Under the pieces are notes generated by a model. That model was given only the letters and a program-made list of their open reading frames with translations. It was not told the origin of the DNA and did not search any database. A stretch of DNA of 19,311 bases. Origin: Jimgerdemannia flammicorona. Its lineage: Eukaryota; Mucoromycota; Endogonomycetes; Endogonales; Endogonaceae. Made by a program: the position numbers and the translations under genes. Shown here one piece after another: positions 1-19,128 of the stretch (position 1 is the stretch's first letter; each line of letters starts with the position of its first letter). The stretch covers positions 1-19,311 of the forward strand of contig RBNI01002198.1 of assembly GCA_003990745.1 (NCBI GenBank). The letters are read 5' to 3'.

Positions 1-2342
1 ATATTGATGACATCCTAGTCTTCAGCAAAACCCTAGAGGAACATCTCGAACACCTTGAACTAGTACTACTGAAACTCCGAGAAAACAGACTCTTCGCAAA
101 ACTCAGCAAGTGCGAATTTCTCCTGAAAGAAATCCAATTCCTTGGATACATTATCACTCCAAATAGAATCAAAGTGGACTCTAGCAAAATCTCTACAATC
201 AAGGATTGGCTCAGACCCAAGAAGCTGAAAGACCTCCAGTCATTCCTGGGATTAGTAAACTATTACAGACGATTTGTTGCCAACTTCGCCAAAATTGCCA
301 CTGCTCTTACCCAAATAACCAAGCACAATAAGAAAGAAGAACAACCCTGGACCACGAAACAAGAAAAAGATTTCAACAATCTTGCAAATTGGGGACCTGA
401 ACAAGATACTGCCTTTCAAGCATTGAAAGATGCCTTGATAACCACTCCAGTACTTCAAGCAGCAAATCCTGCCCTATCATATGAAGTTACCACTGATGCC
501 TCTGACCTAGCTCTTAGAGCAGTACTCATGCAAGAAGGACACCCTGTGGCCTATCACTCCTGCAAGTTCAACGATGCTGAAATCAACTACGCAACTCATG
601 AGAAGGAAATGTTAGCCATTGTAGATACTCTGATCAAATGGCAACCATACCTAGAAGGAGTACACTTCACCATATTGACTGACCACAAGTCATTAGTCAA
701 CATCAAGACCCAGGCTACTCTTTCTCGAAAGCAAGCCAGATGGATGAAAGTCCTCACCAACTTTGACTATGAAATCCAGTATCATCCGGGCAAGGAAAAC
801 ATTGTTGCCGATGTAATCTCCAGACCACCTATTGAAGAAGTTATCCAAACTCTTACCTTGGTTACAAACTCCATCATGGAACAAATTATCGCAACATGTG
901 CTAACGATAAAGAAGCTCAAGCACTCCGAGAAATCCTGAATAGTGACGATGCTGATAAGCATACCCGGTATAATCAATACCAACTCAAGGACAATGCTAT
1001 CTACTACAAGGACAGACTGTATGTTCTAAATAACCGAGACCTCTGAAGGACTATCCTATTCGAATGTCATGATGCGCCTATAGCTGGACACTTAGAATTT
1101 GATAAATGCTATGAAGTTATCTCCCAAAACTTCTATTGGCCCCGAATAGTAGATCAACTCAAGACCTACATCACTTCCTGTGATGCCTGCCAATGGAACA
1201 AGTCCTCAACACTAGCAAAACCTAGTCTACTCCACCCTATCCCAGTACCATCTGCTAATTGGGAACAAGTCTCTATGGACTTCATTGTATAACTACCCCA
1301 AACTAAGAACAGGAAAGATGCAATTGTTGTCTTTATAGACTATCTCAGCAAACAAGCTCACTTTGTACCAACTACCACCACTGCAACCACACCAGACATA
1401 GCTATACTCTTGTTTGACAATATCTTCCACTATCATGGTCTCCCTAGGATCATTGTTAGTGACCAAGACCCGAAATTCACCAGCCATTTTTGGAAAGCCC
1501 TCCATGCACACCTTGGAACAAAACTTGCACTATCTACAGCCTTTCACCCTGAAACTGATGGCCAAACTGAAAGAATGAACCGAACTCTGGAGCAAATGCT
1601 AAGAAACTATGTTTCCTACAGAAAAGATGATTGGCATGAACACCTCACTGCAGTCGAGTTTGCCTATAACAATAGCAAGCAAGTCTCTCTTGGAATGACT
1701 CCATTCTTCGCCAACACTGGACAAAACCCAAACACTCCTCTGACACTCATCCGAACCACTGAAGAACCCTCTACAGTTGAAGCTGTTGAAGAATTCTTAC
1801 TCCAAATGCATAATCTAAGCCAGATCACAATTGAGAACTTATCACAAGCTCAAGAACAACAGTTACAGTATGTTAACCAACATTGCCGAGAAGAAACCTT
1901 TGATATTGGAGAAAAAGTTCTACTAGACATCTGAGGATACCGAGTTGATAACCTCAAGCACAGACCATCTACAAAGCTGAACAGCAAGTTCATTGGACCA
2001 TTTGAAGTCATTTCACAAATCTCTCCGACCTCCTACAAATTGGCACTACCAGACACTATTAAGATTCACCCAGTCTTCAATGTCTAACATCTCAAGCAAT
2101 ACAATGACAATGATGATGAACTATTCCTGAACCAAACTACAGAACCACCTGCACCTGTCATTATTAATGACCAGGAAGAATATGAAGTTGAACAAATCCT
2201 CAACAAACGTGGCCACAAGAACCACCCGGAGTACCTCATTAAATGGAAAAGATATCCAATCCATGATGCAACATGGGAACCCAAGACCAATCTCCAGAAT
2301 GCTACCGACTTAGTTCAGGAATACAATTCCTTGAACAACTGA
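1..2342 (+). pseudogene. pol: pol polyprotein of element 1 (RT end, RNase H, integrase, chromodomain), 5' partial with four stops
   Basis: One frame, codons starting at base 3, runs to the TGA at 2340-2342. It begins at the RT catalytic IDD (base 3, probably preceded by Tyr). RNase H acidic residues sit at codons 495 (TDAS), 600 or 606 (HEKEM), 681 (TDHKS) and 810 (NIVAD). The integrase zinc finger has His codons at 1068 and 1089 and Cys codons at 1179 and 1188. The integrase core has Asp at 1278 (MDFI), Asp at 1461 (VSDQD) and Glu at 1569 (GQTER), with 35 residues between the last two. A chromodomain lies at about 2175-2330 (EYEVEQIL, YLIKWKRY, TWEP). In-frame stops are at 1044 (TGA), 1290 (TAA), 1932 (TGA) and 2085 (TAA), each explicable as C-to-T in CGA or CAA. 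No indel breaks the frame. The product would copy and integrate the element, but as it stands only fragments could be made. Confidence 0.95.
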
Positions 2343-2479: not shown

Positions 2480-2493
2480 AAGAAGGGGAGAGT
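2480..2493 (+). other. polypurine tract (plus-strand primer site), element 1
   Basis: AAGAAGGGGAGAGT lies immediately before the LTR start TGTAAG, the position where an RNase H-resistant purine run primes plus-strand DNA synthesis. Element 2 has the matching AAGAAGGAGAGAGT at 6374-6387. Element 3's LTR has no such tract before it, as expected for a 5' LTR. Confidence 0.85.
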
Positions 2494-2674
2494 TGTAAGC
2501 GCACAACCTCCAAGCCACTGAAATCATATATAATCTTCGAACAAATCTGGAAATCACCTGCAAGATCATGAAGCTGAGTCAAAGAGAAGTCACAGTGCAC
2601 AAAGCTGAGTCAATACCAAGTCATGGAACACAAGATTCACACAAATGGAATCTTACCAATCCAGAACAAATGCA

Positions 2675-2680
2675 TATATA
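2675..2680 (+). promoter_or_regulatory. TATATA box upstream of the LTR-embedded ORF, element 1
   Basis: TATATA lies 70 bases before the conserved ATG at 2750 and follows two TGAGTCA sites at 2575 and 2606. The same arrangement recurs at 6601 and 17263. A promoter role is inferred from position and conservation. Confidence 0.5.
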
Positions 2681-2749
2681 CCCAGCCCCAAGATGCATCG
2701 AAACAGAGAACCAAAACAAATAACAACCATAACTTCCAAATACACAAAC

Positions 2750-3847
2750 ATGACTACCGAGATCTACAACCGCATCTATGCTGACATTTGGAATGCCATT
2801 GTCAACCGAGCTACACCCCCTCTGCCCCTCATGAATATCTACAGCCAAGCACCTCTCTACTTCGTAGAAGCCTGATGGAACGCTCTGAACATGCTTAACG
2901 AGGCCCACCGGATTGGACAAATCTCAAGCTACTACCAGATCGGCCACCTTCTGAAAGACATGGTTGAACACTACCATGATACAGACATTACCCAGATGTC
3001 TCAACACCAGAAACTCATTTCCCACAAACACCAAGAACTCTTCTATGAGTACAGCACCTTTATTCTCCGCCTCCGAGTCACTACCAGCGAAATGGTTGCT
3101 ACCCTGTCCTATGGCCAAATCGACGACATGATACAAGAACTCAACCACAAGTATCTTGAGTACATTGAAACCACAGACAGAACCTTCCCGCACCCCAATG
3201 ACCACATCCTGCAAATGCCCCAAGTTGGGTATGCCATGAAGGACATCTACGATATAATCAACTTTGACAGAGATGAAGCAGAAGACAATGATCCTTCCAA
3301 TACTGATATGACCTCAAGCCAAGGATCTCTTCCAACTCTGATCACACTGCTAACTCTGCCAATGAACTTACAACAGTTCATAACCACATATGAGACTTAT
3401 TGGGACAATGACCACTGGTATGAATACCAACCTACATTCACTCCCGATTACTTCAACTATAATGAAGAGACTGGAGAACACAACCTGTACCTTCAGACAA
3501 CCCTCAAGATTGAACCAACCACTCCACTACCTGAGTACGAGCGACATGAACTATAACTGCCAGCATACTACAACCCTATGACTCATAGTGCTGTAATCTA
3601 CAGAAGGTACGCAGACAGCGAATCTGATGAAAATGAAGACGATACACCACTTCTTCACCCTCCAACACCTTATCCAGCATATGAGACAGATGATGCAATC
3701 CTGTGGGATGGAGATGAAGTTCCAATGTATTATTACCTCAGCGAACAAGAAGAAGTAATCCATGAACTACTCTTCCTAGACAACTACTTCTTCAGAGATG
3801 ATGCAATTGATGGTGATGTCATCGAAGACTACCCAGACAGTGCCTAA
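2750..3847 (+). pseudogene. LTR-embedded ORF, element 1 copy (two stops)
   Basis: This is the same 365-codon frame as the intact copy at 17338-18435, with identical length and no indels. It is broken by TGA at 2873 (CGA in element 3) and TAA at 3554 (CAA in element 3), both C-to-T changes. The first 131 bases differ from element 3 at 10 positions by my count, all transitions. Both PPxY motifs of element 3 are damaged here: PPPEY reads PLPEY, and the second reads LPAY. The family is not recognised; see the element 3 entry for the protein. Confidence 0.85.
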
Positions 3848-4036
3848 ACTTATAAATAGATTAGCAGTCATAGTATAGTTAGATTAGCTTTGTATGACAT
3901 GACTGTGAACTGACTCAGCAGTCAGATGATCTCTTGATATATCAGATCACACTTGTACTACATGACTGTATTCTGACTCAGCAAAGTACTTAGTGCTATA
4001 CCCATATTTAGTATAGTCCAGATAGCCCCTCACTAG

Positions 4037-4044
4037 TATAAATA
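4037..4044 (+). promoter_or_regulatory. TATAAATA box, main LTR promoter, element 1
   Basis: TATAAATA, followed by a C-rich stretch and CAGA-rich sequence, sits about 125 bases before the AATAAA at 4168 and after TGACTCA sites at 3911 and 3974. This is the expected layout of the U3/R border that starts the genomic RNA. The same box is found at 7965 and 18625. Confidence 0.65.
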
Positions 4045-4167
4045 CTCCCTCCCCCAGACCTCAGAATCTCAGACTTGAACAGACTCGAATACACAAGAAC
4101 ATTCCTGAATACTTCCCCAAATATTCCCCACACAACTACTCCTAGTATAGCAATATCATGAATAGCA

Positions 4168-4173
4168 AATAAA
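4168..4173 (+). terminator. AATAAA polyadenylation signal in LTR, element 1
   Basis: AATAAA downstream of the TATA box, in the place where the R region of an LTR directs 3' processing. It is conserved at 8088 and 18750. Confidence 0.55.
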
Positions 4174-4531
4174 CCTATATAATAACCCACAAACCACTCT
4201 TAAGTAAATCCACTCTCCATTAGGTCCTACTCCTAACCCTATCACAAAATTTCCTAATTGGGTATCATCTGCAGTGATACACCAATTCAACTAAACTGGT
4301 CTTAGTTTCTTGAACTTCCTGAAATACAGAAAATCCTGAACATCCAGAACTAGTCCGAAAAAGGACTTTGGTTGAGATGTCAACCTGATCTTGAAATCAA
4401 TAAGCGTAGAGGACATACTCCATATGAAATTGATCTTGACCATAAGAAAACGGTCTTCCAGAATATCCAGAACTTCCAGAAAAACCTTCCAGACTTATGT
4501 AATGATTACCCTAAAAAGCAACCCTCTAACA

Positions 4532-4536
4532 CTTAA
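4532..4536 (+). repeat. probable 5-bp target-site duplication (right copy), element 1
   Basis: CTTAA follows the LTR end directly and is the first piece of element 2; it matches CTCAA at 916-920 in element 1's own pol after one C-to-T. The left copy would lie outside the window, so the duplication itself is inferred. Confidence 0.45.
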
Positions 4537-6387: not shown

Positions 6388-8450
6388 TGTAAGTACACAA
6401 TCTCCAAGCTATTGAAATCACATATCACCTTCTGAATAAGCCACTGAAATCACATGTGACCTCTGAACAAATCTGAAAATCACCTGCAAGATCACAAAGC
6501 TGAGTCAAACTAAAGTCACAGTGCACAAAGCTGAGTCAATATGAAGTCACAGAATACAAAATTTACACAAATGGGATCTTACTAATCAGGACTAAATACA
6601 TATATACCAAGTACTGAGACATGTCAAAACAGAGAACCAAAACAAATCAAATATACAATCACAACTCCTGAACATATACAAACATGACCACTGAGATCTA
6701 CAATCACATCTGCACTGACATTTGGAATACCATTATCAACTGAGCCACACCCCCTCTGCCCCTCATGAATATCCATAGCTTAGCATCTCTCTACTTCATA
6801 GAAGCCTAATAGAATGCCCTGAACATGCTTAGTGAAGCCTACTGAATTGGACAAATCTCAAGCTACTACTAGATCAGCTGCCTCCTGGAAGACATGATCA
6901 AACACTACTATAATATAGACATTACCCAGATGTCTCAACACCAGAAGCTCATTGCCTGCAAATATTAAGAACTCTTCTATGAGTACAGCACCTTTATTCT
7001 CTGCCTCCAAGTTACTACTACTGAAATAGTTGCTACTCTATCCTATGACCAAATAGATAATATGATACAAGAACTCAACCACAAGTATCTCAAGTACATT
7101 CAGACTACAGACAGAACCTTCTTACATCTCAATGACTATATCCTACAAATGTCTCAAGTTAGATATGCTATGAAGGATGTTTATGATATAATCCAATTTG
7201 ATGAAGATGAAGACAATGATCTCTCTGATGCTGACATGACCTCAAGCCAAGGATCTCTGCCAACTCTGATCATACTGCCAATCTTATCAATGAACTTACA
7301 ACAGTTCATAACCACTTACAAAACTTATTGGGACAATGACCACTGATATGAGTACCAACCCACATTTACTCCCAATTACTTCAACTATAATAAAGAGATC
7401 AGAGAATACAACCTGTACCTCCAGACAACCCTTAAGATCAAACCAACAACTCCACCACCTGAGTATAAACAACATGAACTATAGCCACTAGCTTACTACA
7501 ACCCAGCAACTCGTAGTATCATAACTCATAGAAGGTATGCAGATAGTGAATCTGATGAAAGCAAAGATGATGCACCCCTCTTTCACCCACTAATGCCTTA
7601 CTCAGTATATGAGACAAATGATACTATTCTGTGGAATAGTGATGAAGTCCCAATGTATTATTACCTCAGCAAATAAGGAGAATTAATCTGCAAACAGCTC
7701 TTCCTAGACAACTACTTTATCAAAGATGAGATCATTGATAGTGATGTCATTGAAAACTACCCAGATAGTGTCTAAATCTATAGATAGCTTAGCAGTCCTA
7801 GTATAGTTAGATTAGCCTTATATAATGTGACTGTGAACTGACTCAGCAGTCAGATGATCTCTTGATATATCAGATTACACTTGTACTATGTAACTGCATT
7901 CTGACTCAGCAAGACACTAAGTGCTATATCTATATTTAGCATAGCTCAGATAGCCCCTCACTAGTATAAATATCCCCTCTCCCAGACCTCAGAATCTCAG
8001 ACTTGAATACACAAGAATATTCCTGAACACTTCTCCACAATATCCCTTTACACAACTACTCCTAGTATAGTAATATCATGAATAGTAAATAAACTTATTT
8101 AATAACTTATAAATCACTCTTAAGTAAATTCACTCTCTGTTAGATCCCACTCCTAACCCTGTTATGAAATTTCCTAATTGGGTATTGTCTGCAGTGATAC
8201 ATCAATTCAACTAAGCTGGTCTTAGTTTTTTGAACTTCCTGAAATATGGAAATTCTGAATATCTAGAACTAGTCTAAAAAAGATATTTAGTTGAGATGTC
8301 AATCCAATCTTGAAATCAATAAGTATAGAGGACATACTCTATATGAAATTGATCTTGACCTTAAGAAAACGGTCTTCCAAAATATCCAGAACTTCTAGAA
8401 AACTCTTCCAGAACTACATAATGGTTACCCTAATAAGTAACCCTCTTACA
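6388..8450 (+). repeat. 3' LTR of element 2 (2,063 bp, contains a decayed ORF)
   Basis: Runs from TGTAAGTAC after the polypurine tract to CTCTTACA. It retains every landmark of the family: TGAGTCA at 6501 and 6532, TATATA at 6601, the ORF relic 6684-7775, TGACTCA at 7839 and 7902, TATAAATA at 7965, AATAAA at 8088 and a stem-loop at 8176-8207. The base after the LTR begins TATAT, the possible right target-site duplication. Confidence 0.94.
6684..7775 (+). pseudogene. LTR-embedded ORF, element 2 copy (many stops)
   Basis: Aligns with the intact frame at 17338-18435 and is two codons shorter, from loss of six bases in the acidic stretch near 7200. Despite heavy decay no frameshift is evident in the alignment. 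Stops include a TAA TAG pair near 6807-6812 and a TAG near 7482. I count one CpG in this segment against roughly 34 in element 3. The PPEY motif near 7459-7467 is still readable, while the second PPxY is lost. Confidence 0.82.
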
Positions 8451-8599
8451 TATATATTGACCATATAGCCAGCTACCTGAGATCTCTAAATAATACAATC
8501 CAATCCAAATACTGATCACAGAGACTCTATTCTATATTCAATATTCTGAGTCTATTATATATACTTACTACTACTTAGTAGTAGTGCATCACAATCTGA
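8451..8599. other. AT-rich flank right of element 2
   Basis: Low-complexity AT-rich sequence between the LTR and the 33-bp minisatellite. No gene or element is visible. Confidence 0.5.
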
Positions 8600-8955
8600 G
8601 CTGACCCATGTCCATATTTAACCTGACCCAGAATTATATATCACCTATCTTTAACCTGACCTGGAATTATACATCACCCATCTTTAACCCAACCTGGAAT
8701 AATACATCATCTATCTTTAACCCAACCCAGAATAATACATCACCTGTCTTTAACCCGACTTGGAATTATATGTCACCTATCTTTAACTCAATCTGGAAAC
8801 ATACATCACCCATCTTTAACCCAACCCAGAATTATATATAACCTATCTTTAACCCAACCCAAAAAATATACATAATCTGACCCGAGAAATATACATGACC
8901 CAATCCTGACCCATATTTAACCTAACACAGACCTATCTTTAATCTGCCTTTAAGC
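8600..8955. repeat. 33-bp minisatellite, about 7 full units plus degenerate ends
   Basis: The unit reads roughly CCTGACCYRGAATTATAYAT followed by CACCYATCTTTAA. Units start at 8622, 8655, 8688, 8721, 8754, 8787 and 8820, and degenerate partial units lie on both sides. Since 33 is a multiple of three, the array keeps a frame open on the plus strand (an 11-residue repeat at 8608-8841), which I regard as a by-product and not a gene. Confidence 0.9.
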
Positions 8956-9096: not shown

Positions 9097-10098
9097 TTAC
9101 TCTTCATCACTATAAACCAACTGATCCTCCTTCTCTTCATCGCTATAAACCAACTGATCCTCCTTCTTCTCATATTCCAAACCATCTTCCTCCATATATT
9201 CCAAACTGCTTTCCTCTATATCCTCCTCCTCCATATCCTCCTCTATGCCAACCTTCTCTGTGCCAACCTCTATTTCATCCTCCATGCCGACCTCCCTGTG
9301 TTCCTCCATACTGACCTCCCCATATTCCTCTGCGCTGACCTTCCTGTATTTCTTTGTGCCAACCTCTCCATGTTCCTCCATGCTGATCTCTCCCATGCTG
9401 ACCTCCCTATGTTTCTCCATGCTGATCTCCCCCATACCAACCTCTCCATATTTCTCCATACCAACCTCTTCCATGCTGACCTCCCCCACGCTGACCTCCC
9501 CTGCACTGACCTCTCCCATGCTGATCTCTCCACTGACCTCTCCACCAGCGCCAACTCCTCCATCAGCACCGATCTCTCCCACCTCTCCATCTCCTTCACC
9601 ACCACCCCCCTCAATAAAATGTACAAGCCTGCCATCCATCAGTTGCATATAAAGCATTTTGTCATTCTTTACTGGTACTCATTCAAATATGGCCAGTAGT
9701 TTTTCATGTTCATCCATGATGACAATTCCATCTGGACAACCTTACTTGTTCCATGCTTTGGCATTCATCTTGAAGCTAGTGTGGTATGACAAATGTTCTA
9801 TGATTTTCGCACAGTTTTCTATCACTCTTATGACTTCTTGCCTCAGTTGGTCATCATGTACTTTTTTAATGTATTGTTGGCCACAGCAAAAGTATGCCTA
9901 ATGTCTGATTTATAAGGCCTTTTCTCTGTAAGATTTGGGGTATCTGGAAAATTGGTTTGGCAATACTTTCAGGTAATGTTTAGGCAAACTTGATGGCAAA
10001 AATGGCAATTGTAGCAAGATTTGCCCTCCGGCCCAGACTTAGAAGCTGAAGGATATATATTTCGAATGTTATTAGGAAAAAAATTTGGACATTGAAAA
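9097..10098 (-). pseudogene. decayed minus-strand gene with Cys-cluster part and Glu-rich repetitive C-terminus
   Basis: Read on the minus strand, one frame from 9897 down to the stop at 9097-9099 encodes a globular-looking segment (for example KIIEHLSYHTSFKMNAKAWN) and then a Glu/Met/Val-rich tail of 5- and 8-residue repeats, ending with two copies of KEDQLVYSDEE. It has stops at 9742-9744 (TAA, following Lys) and 9679-9681 (TGA), both explicable as C-to-T. Upstream, a second frame (10098 to 9843) holds a cysteine cluster, KSCYNCHFCHQVC, and DIRHTFAVANNTLKK, with one TGA at 9969-9971. The two frames would join by a one-base change in a run of six A's (T's at 9862-9867). The cysteine cluster faintly recalls CXXC-type zinc fingers of the CDCA7 class, but I cannot assign a family. 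The N-terminus is unclear. Confidence 0.5.
9240..9545. repeat. 15/24-bp minisatellite inside the minus-strand gene tail
   Basis: On the plus strand, units such as CATGCTGACCTCCCC and CATGTTCCTC alternate; they correspond to 5-residue (GEVSM) and 8-residue (EEHREVSM) repeats on the minus strand. The period is a multiple of three throughout, as expected if the array grew under coding constraint. Plus-strand frames over the array are shadows. Confidence 0.8.
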
Positions 10099-10169: not shown

Positions 10170-10365
10170 AGTGAGCTGGCAGTCAAGCTGGAGATCGGGA
10201 AGCTGAGGGTCAGCAAGCTGGGAGTCAGCGAGCTTGGTAACCTGGGTATCGGCAAGCTTGGCAGACTGGGTGTTGGCAAGCTTGGCAGGCTGGATGTTGA
10301 TAAGCTCAGTAGGCTGGGTATTGGCAAGCTTGGCAGGCTGGGTGTTAGCAAGCTGGGCATCTTTA
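10170..10365. repeat. 24-bp minisatellite (12-bp half units)
   Basis: Repeats of AAGCTTGGCAGGCTGGGTGT followed by TGGC, with degenerate 12-bp half repeats at the left end. In frame they would read KLGRLGVG on the plus strand or PSLPSLPT on the minus strand. The minus-strand version (ATG at 10451-10453) could belong to the N-terminus of the decayed gene at 9097-10098, but nothing proves it. Confidence 0.8.
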
Positions 10366-10683: not shown

Positions 10684-10771
10684 CTATTTCTAAATTGCAT
10701 GTTGTTTGCAATCTGAGAAATGAGGGTTATATAAGAGAAGTAGAATGCAAGAGGAGTGGAATGCAAGAGGA

Positions 10772-10976
10772 GTGGAATGCAGTGAGGAAAGCTCCAGATT
10801 GTAAGCATAAGCATAAGTGTAAGCACAAGTACAAGCTTTGCTTTGCTCAGCTAATAGCTGATATCATATGATATCAGCTTATTATCAGCTTGTCAGACTG
10901 AGTAGAGCAAAGCTTATACTTATGCTTATGCTTATGCTTACACTTATAATCCAGAACTTTCCTCACTGCATTCCAC
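10772..10976. repeat. long imperfect palindrome 1 (about 100-bp arms)
   Basis: The left arm starts GTGGAATGCAGTGAGGAAAG and the right arm ends CTTTCCTCACTGCATTCCAC, a perfect 20-base inverted pair. Between them the arms pair through CATAAGCATAAG/CTTATGCTTATG and AAGCTTTGCT/AGCAAAGCTT. The centre is the perfect palindrome at 10857-10878 (GCTGATATCA-TA-TGATATCAGC). It would fold into a long hairpin and resembles a foldback element; no transposase is visible. Confidence 0.85.
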
Positions 10977-11035
10977 TTCTCTCTGCATGATTCAGCAGGT
11001 TCTACATAAGCCCCGATTGAGTGAGATTTGCAATG

Positions 11036-11412
11036 ATGTTTAAGCGAGGTTTATGGTACATTTGAGCAAGATTTGTAGCAAGATTTGCAGCAAGGTTTGA
11101 GTGAGATTTACAAGTGAGATTTGCATAAGCTAGGCTTTGCAAGCCTTGCACTTGCAAGCTCAGCCGATAGCTGATATCATGTGATATCAGCTTATATTCA
11201 CATCATATCAGCTTATAACTGAGCTTGTCTAGACTTGCAAGCATAAGGCTTGCAAAGCCTGGCTTATGCAAATCTCACTTTAATCTTATGTGCAAATCTC
11301 ACTTGCAAATCTTGCTTTAATCTTACTTGCAAATCTTGCTCAAACCTCACTGCAAATCTCACTCAAATGCACCACAAACCTTGCTCAAATGTTATTGCAA
11401 ACCTTGCTTAAT
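11036..11412. repeat. long imperfect palindrome 2, same core as palindrome 1
   Basis: The core at 11170-11191 is GCTGATATCATGTGATATCAGC, one base different from palindrome 1. Closer arms pair over 11114-11165 and 11215-11278 (GTGAGATTTGCATAAGC with GCTTATGCAAATCTCAC). The outer arms are built of GCAAGATTTG-type repeats on the left and CAAATCTTGC-type repeats on the right. Short repeats inside the arms suggest repeated local duplication. Confidence 0.8.
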
Positions 11413-11762: not shown

Positions 11763-12815
11763 ATGTCTAAAGATCAAGAAATATATTTAGGAGAAATCTC
11801 AGAACTGTCAGATGATATATTGGAGGATATATCAAAGGATATATCAGATATCTCTACCAGTTTGTTATTACCAATGAGTATAAAAATAAAAATAAAAACA
11901 AAACCTAGTGATAGCTAGGTGTGGAATCATACCACAAAGGTAGTTTTATATATTATACTAATGGTTACATTCATAGAGGTGATTGGTCTCATCAGTTATA
12001 AGGGTGGGTGGTTGGTTGTAAGTGGTTGAGGTTCTAATATAGTCTCATATCTCTCTATTCAAATAGAATTTACAAAGTAAGCTCATCAGTTGCAACCATT
12101 GTATGACTTGGAGCTATATATCAAAGGATAGTAATATCAACAATCTTAAATGACATCTCTGGAAGCATCACAATACCATGCTCTTACCTTTCCAATATGC
12201 TGAGAATCCTTGCTAGTCTAAGAAAGATGATATTGTGAGTATGGATAGAATGGAATTCAGGAAGTACTTAGAAGGTTATTAGAAAAATAATTCATCAAAT
12301 TTTATTATTACAAATAGGAACATACTAGTAAGACTTTAAGTGATGAAAATTTCTATTGGTTAATTGCCAACTTCATTGTCACTGGATATCAGTCATTCTC
12401 TACTATCAAAAATGCTGGCTTCAAGTATCTCCTTCACATATTATGTCCTGATCTGGCCCTTCATTTGGCTGATATGATTTCATGAGTTATTCAAAAGGAA
12501 TTTGAACTATTGCAGACTCAAGTGAAAGCAAGGCTAGCAGGACTTAAGTCAAAGGTGTCACTTACACTTGATTGTTGGACATCAGACATTAACATCAAGA
12601 CCTTCCTTGGAATAATAGCCCATTGGATTGATAGTGATTGGAAGATACATAACATTATCTTAGACTTTGTGAATATCAGTGAAATAATATACACAGGTGC
12701 TAATCTTGCAAAAAGTCTGGAGCTGGTAATAGATGATTTATTGCCTAGTAACAATCAAATCATTGCTATTGTGTGTGACAATGCCAGTAACAATGATACT
12801 CTGTTTGAGAATCTC
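11763..12815 (+). pseudogene. hAT-family transposase relic (BED zinc finger and start of catalytic domain)
   Basis: An ATG at 11763 opens an acidic N-terminus (MSKDQEIYLGEISELSDDIL). BED-finger pieces follow: VWNHTTKV near 11920 and, in another frame, NNLK-stop-HLWKHH near 12139-12170, the His-x(n)-His end of the finger with Arg lost to TGA. From about 12339 the catalytic N-terminal part is clear: WLIANFIVTGYQSFSTIKNA, then after a TGA at 12483 the SLTLDCWTSDINIKTFLGI block (12555-12615) and VCDNASNND near 12772-12800. These blocks are hallmarks of hAT transposases, which cut and paste DNA. Several stops and frame changes show it is dead. The catalytic C-terminus and dimerisation domain are missing; the relic stops at a poly(T) run. 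Confidence 0.88.
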
Positions 12816-13985
12816 TTTTTTTTTTTTTTTTTTTATAGACTCATGTCCCACGGAATTTTATTGGAAGGGAACCTAGACTATATAGGCCAAAACTCTCCCC
12901 CACCACCCACCAAGCACTGCCCCTCTATTAACCTAGGCTAGCTATTGTCTAGCAGCTCAACCATGCCAGGTACAGCAGGGCCTATGTTGGCCTGCATCTC
13001 ATTCTGTGCACCATGCTCTCCCTACTACCAGGGGAAACCCAACCATATGCCAATGACCAAAAGTGCATGCCTGAGAACCCAACATATGTACAAGGCCACA
13101 CTCGAGCTGAATAGAATAGCCCCTGCCACCCCAAAGAGAATAACAGGTAAAGAAAAACCCTCATCAAAGCACAATATGGTGGGAAGAGCCTGGTTCTCTC
13201 AGTTGAGGTGAGTAAAGGACTTATACATGAGATAGGAGGAAACCCCCAATACCCCACTACTCAAGCCTGCAGACCTCAATCACATTGCTATATCAGCTCC
13301 CAGTTCCAGTTGAGTATAGTCAAGATGCCTAAAATGGGTAGCCTTGGGCCCCCCGATCCCCCCTGATGACTGGGCCCAACCCTGCTGACCACCAAAAGAA
13401 GCCAAGAGTGACACCTATCATCTAACCATGCCACACCAATCAAAAGGTCTCACCGAAGTAGCACCTACCCCAGCCCTGATAACCGCCCCCAGTCTGGCAC
13501 CCTACTGGTTCACTATTAATGCCCTTTCTCCTATCTATAATGGCCATCTCCCCTCCCATCCCGACAACACCTGAAAAGCAGTCACCTATACCAGAACTGT
13601 ACTCGCCGGAAAGCTTACCAAAGCCAGAGGACCCCACCATAGGCACCGAAGACCTGCAGGTAACCTATACTGAGCACTTGACACCCAAGATTGACCGACT
13701 CCCTATATAGCCTGAGACACACCAAGACACCACCTTGTTGGTAACAGCAAAAGGAAGAAGGTGCTGCACCAAAATAGATGTACTCCAGACATAGCCAAAG
13801 ATACCAGAAACTGCGAAAAAGTAGAGAAGACACCAATCTGATACCGATAAAGGGGCAATTCATCACCATTACCCTCCTCCCATCATACCCATGCAGGTAC
13901 AGCAAACCAACCCAAGGTAGAGGGGGTAATAATAGAGGAAAGGGGACTCAGAAGGTTGCCTACCAAACCTTGTGACTGGTAAGAT
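12816..13985 (-). mobile_element. possible poly(A)-tailed retroposed insertion, minus orientation
   Basis: A run of 19 T's at 12816-12834 interrupts the hAT relic. On the minus strand it is a poly(A) tail, preceded about 23 bases upstream by AATAAA (TTTATT at 12857-12862), the normal spacing of a polyadenylated transcript. The sequence beyond is richer in C and G than the flanks. I recognise no reverse transcriptase and no known protein on either strand, and the far end is placed only by the change to simple repeats near 13985. No target-site duplication is evident. It could be a non-LTR element 3' end, a SINE-like element or a processed transcript. Confidence 0.5.
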
Positions 13986-14084: not shown

Positions 14085-14203
14085 TGATCTGGATTGATCC
14101 GGATTGATCCAACCAGATTGATCCATCTGGATTGATCCAGATTGGTCTATCTGGATTGGTCCATCCAGATTGGTCCATCCAGATTGATTCATCCGGATTG
14201 AAA
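14085..14203. repeat. 15-bp minisatellite, GATTGGTCCATCCA type
   Basis: About eight imperfect copies of CAGATTGGTCCATCC / GGATTGATCC. The approach (14010-14085) holds scattered GATTCAGATT-like degenerate units. Confidence 0.85.
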
Positions 14204-14933: not shown

Positions 14934-15274
14934 GTGAGCAATCTTGTGTAACTCATACAACTCATTGGCATGCAACTCATCGGCATGTAACTCATTGGTA
15001 TATAGCTCACTCACTCACTCACTTACTCACTCATGCTCTTTTTCTGAAATACCCATCTCTATGTTTTATTTAATTTCATTTTTACATAGTCTCCCCCTAA
15101 AAAAACACTCACACCCACATGCAACCCGCCCACATGCAACCCGCCTACATGCAACTCACCCGCATGCAATCCACCTGCACGTAACCTGCCCGCACGCAAC
15201 CTGCCTGCATGCAACCCACTGGCACGTAACCCACCTGCATGCAACCTGTCCACATACTTATCTCGGTCTCTCAG
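14934..15274 (+). other. intron 2 of the five-exon gene, carrying a 15-bp minisatellite
   Basis: GTGAGC at 14934 to TCAG ending at 15274 gives a 341-base intron, long for a fungus. Most of the length is minisatellite, so expansion of the repeat probably lengthened it. Confidence 0.5.
14948..15250. repeat. split 15-bp minisatellite, CATGCAACCCGCCCA type
   Basis: Two blocks of the same 15-bp unit: 14955-15010 (CATGCAACTCATTGG) and about 15116-15250 (CATGCAACCCGCCCA, about nine copies). They are separated by about 100 bases of non-repeat sequence (15015-15113) containing CTCACTCACTCAC simple sequence. CATGCAAC is the most constant part. Frames on both strands across it are incidental. Confidence 0.85.
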
Positions 15275-17082: not shown

Positions 17083-17163
17083 TGTAAGCGCACAACCTCC
17101 AAGCCACCGAAATCACACGCGACATCTGAACAAATCTAGAAATCAGCTGCATGATCATGAAGC

Positions 17164-17200
17164 TGAGTCAAACAGAAGTCACAGCACACAAGCTGAGTCA
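17164..17200 (+). promoter_or_regulatory. paired TGAGTCA sites upstream of the LTR-embedded ORF, element 3
   Basis: TGAGTCA at 17164-17170 and 17194-17200, each preceded by AAGC or AGC. TGASTCA is the binding motif of Gcn4/AP-1 type bZIP factors in fungi and animals. The pair is conserved at 2575/2606 and 6501/6532. Binding is inferred, not shown. Confidence 0.5.
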
Positions 17201-17262
17201 ATACCAAGTCACAGAACACAAGATTCATACAAATGGGATCTTACCAATCCAGAACAAATGCA

Positions 17263-17268
17263 TATATA
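17263..17268 (+). promoter_or_regulatory. TATATA box for the LTR-embedded ORF, element 3
   Basis: TATATA followed by CCCAGCCCCAAGA, 75 bases before the ATG at 17338. The A-rich, G-poor sequence from about 17290 to 17337 would make a plausible 5' untranslated leader. Confidence 0.5.
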
Positions 17269-17337
17269 CCCAGCCCCAAGACACGTCGAAACAGAGAACC
17301 AAAACAAACAATAACCACAACTTCCAAATACACAAAC

Positions 17338-18435
17338 ATGACTACCGAGATCTACAACTGCATCCGTGCTGACATTTGGAATGCCATTGTCAACCAAGCT
17401 ACACCCCCTCTGCCCCTCATGAATATCTACAGCCAGGTACCCCTCTACTTCGTGGAAGCCCGATGGAATGCCCTGAACATGCTTAATGAGGCCCACCGGA
17501 TTGGACAAATCTCAAGCTACTACCAGATCAGCTGCCTCCTGGAAGACATGGTCGAACACCACCACGATACAGATATTACCCAGATGTCTCAACACCAGAA
17601 GCTCATCGCTCGCAAACACCGAGAGCTCTTCTACGAGTACAGCACCTTTATTCCCCGCCTCCGAGTTACTACCAGCAAAATGGTTGCTACCCTGTCCTAC
17701 GGCCAAATCGATGACATGATACAAGAACTCAACCACAAGTATCTTGAGTACATTGAAACCACAGACAGAATCTTCCCACACCCCGATGATCACATCCTGC
17801 AAATGCCCCAAGTTGGATACACCATGAAGGACATCTACGATATAATCAACTTCGACAAGGATGAAGCAGAAGACAATGATCCTTCCGATGCCAACATGAC
17901 TTCAAGCCAAGGATCTCTTCTAACTCTGATCACACCACCAACTCTGCCGATGAACTTAGAACAGTTCATAACTACATACGAGACTTATTGGGACAATGAC
18001 CACTGGTACGAATACCAACCTGCATTCACCCCCGACTACTTCAACTACAATGAAGAGACCAGAGAACACAACCTATACCTTCAGACAACCCTCAAGAGCG
18101 AACCAACCACTCCACCACCTGAGTACGAGCGACATGAACCACAACCGCCAGTATACTACAACCCCGCAACTCATAGTGCTGTAACCTACAGAAGGTACGC
18201 AGACAGCAAATCCGATGAAAACGAAGATGATGCACCACTTCTTCACCCACCAACACCTTATCCAGCATATGAAACAGATGATGCTATCCTATGGGATGGA
18301 GATGAAGTTCCAATGTATTATTACCTCAGCCAACAAGGAGAAGTAATCTACGAACCACTCTTCCTAGACGACTACTTCATCAGAGATGATGTCATTGATA
18401 GTGATGTCATCGAAGACTACCCAGACAGCACCTAA
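17338..18435 (+). CDS. LTR-embedded protein of unknown function, intact, 365 aa
   Basis: The frame lies wholly within the LTR, between a TATATA box and the main LTR promoter. I chose the ATG at 17338 (AAACATGAC) because it follows the TATA box at a normal distance; an in-frame ATG at 17233 would add 35 residues but lies upstream of that box. Residues 1 to about 185 look helical and contain Tyr/His-rich segments (LNMLNEAHRIGQISSYYQ, IDDMIQELNHKYLEYIET). Residues 185-365 are acidic, Tyr/Pro/Asp-rich and probably disordered, with PPEY at 260-263, PPVY at 270-273, a DENEDD acidic run near 290 and an acidic tail (DVIEDYPDST). There is no signal peptide, membrane segment, Cys-His box or protease motif, so it is neither an obvious Env nor Gag nucleocapsid. 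Elements 1 and 2 carry the same frame with stops but no frameshift. The function is unknown; the PPxY motifs could bind WW domains, as in Rsp5/Nedd4 ubiquitin ligases. Confidence 0.75.
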   Translation: MTTEIYNCIRADIWNAIVNQATPPLPLMNIYSQVPLYFVEARWNALNMLNEAHRIGQISSYYQISCLLEDMVEHHHDTDITQMSQHQKLIARKHRELFYEYSTFIPRLRVTTSKMVATLSYGQIDDMIQELNHKYLEYIETTDRIFPHPDDHILQMPQVGYTMKDIYDIINFDKDEAEDNDPSDANMTSSQGSLLTLITPPTLPMNLEQFITTYETYWDNDHWYEYQPAFTPDYFNYNEETREHNLYLQTTLKSEPTTPPPEYERHEPQPPVYYNPATHSAVTYRRYADSKSDENEDDAPLLHPPTPYPAYETDDAILWDGDEVPMYYYLSQQGEVIYEPLFLDDYFIRDDVIDSDVIEDYPDST

Positions 18436-18498
18436 ACCTATAAATAGATTAGCAGTCATATTATAGTTAGATTAGCCTTGTACGATATGACTGTGAAC

Positions 18499-18568
18499 TG
18501 ACTCAGCAGTCAGACGATCTCTTGACATGTCAGATCACACTTGTACTATGTGACTGCATTCCGACTCA
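18499..18568 (+). promoter_or_regulatory. second pair of bZIP-type sites, upstream of the main LTR promoter, element 3
   Basis: TGACTCA at 18499-18505 within CTGACTCAGCAGTCAG, and CGACTCA at 18562-18568. Elements 1 and 2 have TGACTCA at both positions (3911/3974 and 7839/7902). The sites lie 57 to 126 bases before TATAAATA. Confidence 0.5.
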
Positions 18569-18624
18569 GCAAGACACTTAGTGCTACATTCATATTTAGC
18601 ATAGCCCAGATAGCCCCTCACTAG

Positions 18625-18632
18625 TATAAATA
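18625..18632 (+). promoter_or_regulatory. TATAAATA box, main LTR promoter, element 3
   Basis: The CACTAGTATAAATA context is conserved in all three LTRs. It is followed by CCCCCTCCCCCAGACCTCAG, where the transcript start of the genomic RNA would lie, and by AATAAA 125 bases on. Confidence 0.65.
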
Positions 18633-18749
18633 CCCCCTCCCCCAGACCTCAGAATCTCAGACCTGAACAATCTGAACACAACTCCTGAGCACTTCCCCAC
18701 AATATCCCTCCACACAACTACTCCTAGTATAGCAATATCATGAATAGAG

Positions 18750-18755
18750 AATAAA
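18750..18755 (+). terminator. AATAAA polyadenylation signal, element 3 LTR
   Basis: AATAAA in the context AGAGAATAAACC, between the TATA box and the stem-loop. In the 5' LTR this signal would have to be ignored and used only in the 3' LTR. Confidence 0.5.
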
Positions 18756-18837
18756 CCTATTTAATAACCCACAAACCACTCTTAAGTAAATCCGCTCCCC
18801 GTTAGGTCCTACTCCTAACCACAATACGAAATTTCCT

Positions 18838-18869
18838 AATTGGGTATTGTCTGCAGCGATACGCCAATT
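18838..18869 (+). other. conserved stem-loop in R/U5 of element 3 LTR
   Basis: AATTGG GTATTG pairs with CGATAC G CCAATT around the loop TCTGCAG, with one bulged G and one G-T wobble. Element 1 (4256-4287) has GTATCA with TGATAC, and element 2 (8176-8207) has GTATTG with TGATAC. Pairing survives in all three despite decay. A role in RNA packaging or 3' processing is a guess. Confidence 0.6.
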
Positions 18870-19116
18870 CAACTAAGCTGGTCTTAGTTTCTTGAACCTC
18901 CTGAAATACGGAAAATCCTGAACATCCAGAACTAGTCCAAAAAGGGACTTTGGTTGAGACGTCAACCTGATCTTGAAATCAATAAGCATAGAGGATGTAC
19001 TCCATACGAAATTGATCTTGACCATAAGAAAACGGTCTTCCAGAATATCCAGAACTTCCAGAAAACCCTTCCAGAACTACATAACAGTTACCCTAAAAAG
19101 TAACCCTCTTACAACT

Positions 19117-19128
19117 TGGTAGCAGCAG
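19117..19128 (+). other. primer binding site, tRNA-iMet type
   Basis: TGGTAGCAGCAG begins three bases after the LTR end. TGGT plus AGC matches the complement of the 3' end of initiator Met tRNA (GCTACCA), the usual primer for many fungal Ty elements. The match past TGGTAGC cannot be checked without the host tRNA. Confidence 0.75.

What the first reader, a model, noticed from the sequence alone, without database searches (positions are those of the whole stretch)
17083..19113. An LTR that carries its own gene
A 365-codon open frame lies entirely inside an LTR whose borders are set independently: the same 2 kb follows a polypurine tract in elements 1 and 2 and precedes a primer binding site in element 3. 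A complete element would therefore carry the gene twice. LTR-internal genes are rare (mouse mammary tumour virus sag is the classic case), and I know of no fungal chromovirus described with one. All three copies keep the frame without frameshifts (365, 365 and 363 codons), which suggests it was maintained until each insertion decayed.
Basis: partly seen in the sequence, partly recalled or inferred. Interest (0 to 1): 0.88.

Follow-up and report, generated by a model that had tools for sequence, protein, structure and literature searches.

The report
Fungal retrotransposon gene inside its LTR
A retrotransposon in what is likely a fungal genome carries a 365-codon gene wholly inside the long terminal repeats at its two ends, a place that is ordinarily non-coding, and the pattern of mutations among more than fifty copies shows that selection protected its protein; it likely makes a helper protein for the element, whose job is untested.

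Summary
The 2,031-bp repeat at 17083-19113 is a true LTR: of ten elements picked by their pol gene, nine carry it with the frame at both ends, eight have exact 5-bp target duplications, and a predicted initiator-tRNA-Met primer site follows it. The element is a chromovirus (chromodomain found). The 365-codon frame lies in U3, upstream of the predicted genomic TATA box, and has a TATA box of its own preceded by two TGAGTCA sites. It behaves as a selected gene: 5 distinct indels in the frame against 61 in the shorter non-coding LTR; changes between the two LTRs of one element look neutral (N/S 1.47), whereas variants shared by ten or more copies are mostly synonymous (0.32; p about 1e-7). One relative, 66-67% identical, was found; no Pfam, PDB, NCBIfam or PHROG match. 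The gene is therefore accessory, not essential in cis. Its function is inferred, not shown. New variant of a known kind (sag-like placement, unrelated protein).

The parts
17083..19113 (+). LTR, copy 3 (2,031 bp, TG...CA); the contig ends shortly after its primer binding site
17338..18435 (+). U3-internal gene, 365 codons plus stop; acidic product (pI about 4.3), no membrane-spanning segment predicted
17160..17222 (+). 30-bp unit repeated 2.1 times with TGAGTCA (bZIP-type) sites at 17164-17170 and 17194-17200; predicted enhancer of the ORF promoter
   Evidence: sites exact in 38 of 43 and 44 of 44 copies readable there
17263..17268 (+). TATATA box 70-75 bp upstream of the ORF start; predicted ORF promoter
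   Evidence: sequence; the six commonest variants, 38 of 45 copies, begin ATATATA
18499..18505 (+). TGACTCA site upstream of the predicted genomic-RNA promoter
   Evidence: exact in 42 of 46 copies
18625..18632 (+). TATAAATA box; predicted promoter of the genomic RNA, which places the ORF in U3
   Evidence: sequence
18750..18755 (+). AATAAA; predicted shared polyadenylation signal
   Evidence: sequence
19117..19128 (+). primer binding site, complement of the initiator tRNA-Met 3' end (11 of 12 here; 12 of 12 in L082)
2494..4531 (+). LTR copy 1, 3' LTR of element 1; its ORF at 2750-3847 has 2 in-frame stops and no frameshift
6388..8450 (+). LTR copy 2, 3' LTR of element 2; its ORF at 6684-7775 has 9 stops and one 6-bp deletion
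3..2339 (+). pol remnant of element 1, in pieces broken by stops: RT end and RNase H 3-1043, integrase zinc domain 1047-1289, integrase core 1293-1931, Tf2-type SH3 1935-2084, chromodomain 2088-2339
2480..2493 (+). polypurine tract directly before LTR copy 1

Best explanation
The LTR of this high-copy chromovirus contains a protein-coding gene of 365 codons, placed by its predicted promoter in U3, that was kept by purifying selection and likely makes an accessory protein that regulates the element's expression in trans. Shown by calls: the borders of the LTR, the gene in both LTRs of single elements, frame protection, synonymous bias of shared variants, near-neutral change between the two LTRs of one element, and a subfamily that lacks the gene but keeps its tail. 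Predicted from sequence: a promoter of its own (two TGAGTCA sites, then TATATA at 17263) and a second promoter downstream (TGACTCA, then TATAAATA at 18625) that would start the genomic RNA, both ending at one AATAAA. Inferred, untested: because U3 is copied to both ends and stays behind in every solo LTR, the gene could be expressed without gag-pol, so the many solo LTRs may act as a shared source of the protein; its acidic, aromatic C-terminal half resembles an activation domain, and the shared TGASTCA sites would couple both promoters. ORF-less elements would then live on protein supplied by others.
For: LTR: 9 of 10 pol-selected elements carry the frame in both LTRs, 8 of 10 have exact 5-bp target duplications. 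Frame: among 46 copies (one per element or place, window copy 3 as reference) 5 distinct indels in 1,098 coding bp, 61 in 933 non-coding bp, binomial P 1e-15; of 30 whole-frame copies picked by U5 or pol only, 2 have a frameshift. Selection: 8 intra-element LTR pairs N 300, S 204; variants in 10 or more copies N 21, S 65 against private N 113, S 78, Fisher 7e-8; CpG-only p 9e-4, non-CpG 6/29 against 168.5/96.5, p 2e-7; no codon-position skew in the non-coding 3' part. Rough yardstick: pol N/S 0.45 (6 pairs of 4 copies), ORF 0.60 (21 pairs of 7 high-scoring copies). P0001, 66-67% identical with in-frame gaps only. Regulatory sites. Not essential in cis: ORF-less elements with pol between their LTRs.
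Against: No transcript or peptide seen. No family match in Pfam, NCBIfam, PHROGs or PDB, and AlphaFold gave no model (mean pLDDT 33), so the regulator role rests on composition and position only. 9 of 54 distinct copies are open and unshifted; the rest have stops, frameshifts or both. The ORF-less subfamily shows that the gene can be lost. TATA, TGASTCA and AATAAA are consensus matches, and the 12 LTR-borne TGASTCA sites of the window come from three copies of one LTR, so they are not independent; which factors bind them is recalled from other fungi. Copies are related, so the p-values are approximate.
Confidence: 0.4

Rival explanations
1. The gene makes a counter-defence (anti-silencing or anti-deamination) protein that protects the family from host methylation or RIP-like mutation.
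For: The family is under heavy C-to-T decay: within element pairs 0.42 of CpG, 0.10 of CpA, 0.065 of CpC and 0.006 of CpT sites differ, so such a factor would pay. It is kept without being essential in cis.
Against: No domain evidence; the copies decayed all the same; C498 without the gene shows about the same LTR divergence (4.9%, one pair) as eight elements with it (3.6-7.8% in the ORF).
Confidence: 0.25
2. The gene makes a structural or replication protein (second capsid-like, RNA-packaging or RNA-export factor) used in the transposition cycle.
For: Pairwise N/S of the ORF is of the same order as that of pol.
Against: No similarity to the 2 kb after the 5' LTR that holds gag (best E 4.4); gag has a zinc knuckle, the ORF has no Pfam match; ORF-less elements multiplied, though supply in trans could explain that.
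Confidence: 0.2
3. The gene is captured cargo of host origin, kept because it serves the host or manipulates it.
For: No relation to known retroelement families found; placement in the LTR makes it survive as a solo LTR.
Against: No host homologue seen, but these lists are saturated by family copies and were not checked one by one, so a lone host gene could be missed.
Confidence: 0.1
4. No protein is made: the open frame is a by-product of composition or of conserved regulatory DNA or RNA in U3.
For: No transcript or peptide is at hand. The synonymous bias also shows in antisense frame 2 (28/61 among variants in 10 or more copies), as expected when third positions coincide.
Against: Indel exclusion, third-position bias in this frame, no stop among its variants shared by 10 or more copies (4 in antisense frame 2), near-neutral change within elements, and the in-frame protein relative P0001. 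LTR copy 3 has no antisense frame of 100 aa or more.
Confidence: 0.05

Closest known systems
MMTV sag and related betaretroviral sag genes (PMC4667437, passages seen)
   Same: Gene in U3 of the LTR, so present at both ends and in solo LTRs; several promoters, one of them internal to U3, are reported for sag; purifying selection (omega 0.289 in one test there).
   Different: Host kingdom; no detectable protein similarity; no membrane segment here; here the whole frame is inside the LTR, whereas the passage says the majority of sag is.
crapaud chromovirus of Podospora anserina (PMC10787394, passages and section 6 read)
   Same: Fungal chromovirus whose subfamilies differ in the U3 part of the LTR ahead of the TATA box while the 3' half is conserved; the ORF-less subfamily here shows the same kind of U3 replacement.
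   Different: The figure legend there gives two ORFs (gag and pol domains), none in the LTR; its two LTRs together are about 800 bp.
Additional ORFs of plant LTR retrotransposons (PMC7264820, four passages seen)
   Same: An accessory frame kept in all or most copies of some families, function unclear.
   Different: Described there mostly between pol and the 3' LTR, hence once per element; here in the LTR and twice.
Fungal chromoviruses surveyed in PMC2864245 (passages seen)
   Same: gag-pol with chromodomain, PPT; [quoted passage not shown]
   Different: Where that ORF lies is not told in the passages and figures are not held, so I cannot exclude a case like this one there; the one LTR length seen is 440 bp (SM-Tcn1 of a spikemoss).

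Membership tests
Chromovirus (Ty3/Gypsy) | Chromodomain after integrase | tested here: met
   PF00385 E 4.1e-17 in 2088-2339; Tf2-type SH3 just before it
Chromovirus (Ty3/Gypsy) | RT, RNase H, integrase in this order | tested here: met
   RVT_1 end, RT_RNaseH, Integrase_H2C2 PF17921, rve at E 6.7e-7 but below its gathering score
Chromovirus (Ty3/Gypsy) | LTR pair, 5-bp target duplication, PBS and PPT | tested here: met
   8 of 10 elements exact, one not exact (C1276), one not testable (C1954); PBS
Chromovirus (Ty3/Gypsy) | gag with zinc knuckle after the 5' LTR | tested here: met
   PF00098 E 2e-5 in L082, one element
MMTV-type sag | Sense-strand gene in U3 of the LTR | tested here: met
   U3 assigned from the TATA box, transcript start not mapped
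MMTV-type sag | Homology to sag proteins | tested here: not met
   0 Pfam families up to E 10, 0 PDB matches
MMTV-type sag | Membrane protein (type II, recalled) | tested here: not met
   highest 19-residue Kyte-Doolittle mean 0.77
env-type additional ORF | Transmembrane segment; place between pol and 3' LTR | tested here: not met

The most novel reading that the evidence does not exclude
The LTR is a two-in-one unit: a trans-acting gene with its own promoter nested in U3, so that recombination to solo LTRs, which strips other LTR elements of their genes, leaves this family with a large stock of gene-bearing solo LTRs that together supply a regulator to the complete elements; the ORF-less subfamily is a parasite of that shared supply.
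Probability: 0.25. Interest if true: 0.88.

Novelty: new variant of a known kind. Interest (0 to 1): 0.72.

Why it matters
LTRs are treated as regulatory DNA, and repeat annotation masks them. A selected gene inside one means that an element can keep a protein product after losing its whole coding body, which changes how solo LTRs are read. The family offers natural gene-bearing and gene-less versions of one element in one genome, so the gene's effect on spread and silencing could be measured from sequence and RNA data alone. It would also be an independent case of the sag arrangement outside vertebrate retroviruses.

Tried and rejected
Not an LTR but an independent 2-kb element: rejected (pairs around pol, target duplications, PBS, PPT). 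Gag duplicate: no similarity in tblastn of the ORF against L082, best E 4.4 (L082 is only the first 2,025 bp after one 5' LTR). Env-like: no membrane segment. N/S signal as an artefact of CpG hot spots: tested and rejected. Fold search: not run, because the AlphaFold model is meaningless. Host naming: Zn_clus 51 matches, 0 of the tool's 14 control genomes; PF20151 none, but its control did not ring either, so it says nothing. Homologues: 1 protein in two searches. Print: searches for genes or ORFs in LTRs showed no fungal case in the rows listed, at most 25 of up to 145 papers each, titles and abstract starts only; the library lacks most subscription papers, and the 'add. ORF' of PMC2864245 could not be placed. 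Against my reading: the ORF-less subfamily; L081, an older relative, has many stops and two frame changes; private transversions are also rather synonymous (34/22), so the private class is not purely post-insertion, which makes that test conservative. Left out of counts: copies not spanning the whole ORF; L017 (same place as L005) and in the frequency classes of 82 (it stayed in the expected value of 82); the second LTR of eight elements in 39, 42 and the classes of 82; the C94 pair in 38, as its 3' piece is incomplete.

Full report
What is there. The 2,031-bp stretch 17083-19113 begins TGTAAG and ends CTTACA and occurs three times in the window; twice it follows a purine tract (2494, 6388) and once it precedes a primer binding site. 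The window is one whole contig, C2198, of a 134.8-Mb assembly of 7,754 contigs. The genome is likely fungal: 51 Zn2Cys6 matches (that this domain is nearly confined to fungi is recalled). The pol remnant of element 1 has RNase H, integrase zinc and core domains, a Tf2-type SH3 and a chromodomain, and a zinc-knuckle gag stretch lies downstream of the 5' LTR in another copy (L082), so the element is a chromovirus.

It is an LTR. Nine of ten carry the repeat with the frame at both ends (in C94 the fetched 3' piece starts inside the frame); in one, C498, both LTRs lack the frame. Eight of ten show exact 5-bp target duplications (C812, C356, C747, C672, C602, C849, C94, C498); C1276 does not match exactly and C1954 could not be tested. 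Three LTRs without PPT or PBS neighbours also have exact 5-bp duplications and are solo LTRs (L018, L073, L074). The primer site matches the 3' end of the genome's tRNA-Met gene, 12 of 12 in L082, 11 of 12 in the window; that it is the initiator is judged from its A1:U72 pair (recalled mark).

Copy number. The LTR query gave 3,757 first-look candidates of which 40 were scored (45 matches); the protein gave 3,898 of which 112 were scored and matched. Matches are lower bounds and candidates only a rough guide, so a total in the thousands is an inference. Choosing by U5 alone and leaving out the window, 29 loci were held: 13 span the whole frame, 3 hold part of it (L022, L024, L042), 3 lack it with a break at LTR position 1299 and a C498-type U3 (L027, L034, L048), and 10 end too early to tell.

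The frame is a gene. Of 54 distinct copies spanning the frame (window copies 1 and 2 included), 4 have a frameshift and 9 are open and unshifted; the stops are nearly all explicable by C-to-T or G-to-A changes. Some copies were chosen by protein similarity (L010-L018, L073-L079), which favours open frames; among the 30 whole-frame copies chosen by U5 or pol, 2 have a frameshift. Distinct indels: 5 in the 1,098-bp frame, 61 in the 933 non-coding bp (22 in the 255 bp before, 39 in the 678 bp after), in 46 copies.

Selection. The two LTRs of one element are expected to be identical at insertion, so their differences are a neutral yardstick in the same sequence. In 8 pairs there are 504 differences in the frame, 491 of them transitions, N/S 300/204 = 1.47; the value expected from context-weighted deamination is 1.77. 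Between elements the mean pair has N 41.2 and S 58.4 (1,477 non-independent pairs). Variants in ten or more copies are N 21, S 65, private ones N 113, S 78 (Fisher 7e-8), with no stop among the shared ones in this frame. The effect remains within CpG sites (16/38 against 131.5/107.5, p 9e-4) and outside them (6/29 against 168.5/96.5, p 2e-7). The non-coding 3' part shows no codon-position skew. Pol gives N/S 0.45 in 6 pairs, the ORF 0.60 in 21 pairs of 7 high-scoring copies; this comparison is rough, as neither is corrected for decay. The gene was thus held by selection in the source lineages and decays freely after insertion. The protein P0001 (247 aa, one ENA contig) is 66-67% identical with two in-frame gaps of two residues and a similar C-terminus. 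L081, an older relative in this genome, has a 2.06-kb LTR with the same frame, heavily broken.

The gene-less subfamily. C498's LTRs are 1,484 bp with target duplication CCTGG. The first 64 bp (78%) and the last 733 bp (94%) match the window LTR, the middle of U3 is different and holds no frame over 69 codons (frames of 60 aa or more with ATG, GTG or TTG); about 17-19 codons and the stop of the ORF remain. This points to loss, not gain. The unique U3 piece gave 1,337 candidates, 40 scored, with same-strand pairs at about 8.01 kb (C498, C954) and 4.87-4.88 kb (C4156, C486, C7611); a pol match lies between the pair in C498 and in C954. So the gene is not needed in cis.

How it may work. The U3 has two predicted promoters with the same kind of site: TGAGTCA twice in a 30-bp tandem repeat, then TATATA 70-75 bp before the ATG; and TGACTCA, then TATAAATA before R. 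The window has 13 TGASTCA sites against 5.0 expected, 12 of them in the three LTR copies (not independent). The gene-less LTR keeps one TGASTCA site only, the downstream one. The product is acidic (pI 4.3; C-terminal 190 residues 4.05 with 28 aromatic residues), with no membrane segment. I infer an accessory regulator acting in trans; counter-defence and a structural role are open rivals. AlphaFold gave nothing usable.

Known and new. MMTV sag is the known gene in U3 (PMC4667437, passages: LTRs 'ordinarily non-coding'). Fungal U3 swapping is known from crapaud (PMC10787394, passages and section 6). Plant additional ORFs lie mostly between pol and the 3' LTR (PMC7264820, passages). A survey of fungal chromoviruses names an additional ORF of unknown function in a figure legend without a place that I could read (PMC2864245). 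My searches showed no fungal LTR gene in the rows listed. I rate it a new variant of a known kind.

Noticed in passing
L053-L072 pairs: Differences within eight element pairs have a strong context: 42% of CpG, 10% of CpA, 6.5% of CpC and 0.6% of CpT sites, a methylation- or RIP-like signature with CpT nearly spared.
   Followed up: partly
G000 C4156, C486, C7611: ORF-less LTRs in same-strand pairs 4.87-4.88 kb apart on three contigs, suggesting a shortened, possibly non-autonomous derivative.
   Followed up: no
G000 C7672:2834-6491, C3664:4842-8333, L005:3533-3739: LTR stretches abutting in opposite orientation with almost no gap; nested insertion or assembly artefact.
   Followed up: no
window 4531-4532: LTR copy 1 runs straight into the middle of element 2's pol, so element 1 appears to be inserted in element 2.
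   Followed up: no
window 8584-8873, 9100-9545, 10213-10359, 14087-14201, 15114-15255: Several tandem arrays with 14-15-, 24-, 33- and 39-bp periods.
   Followed up: no
window 12510-12941: 143-aa frame that reads like part of an hAT-type transposase (recalled resemblance); no Pfam match.
   Followed up: partly
window 10766-10982 and 11112-11280: Two imperfect inverted repeats with 85- and 76-nt arms.
   Followed up: no
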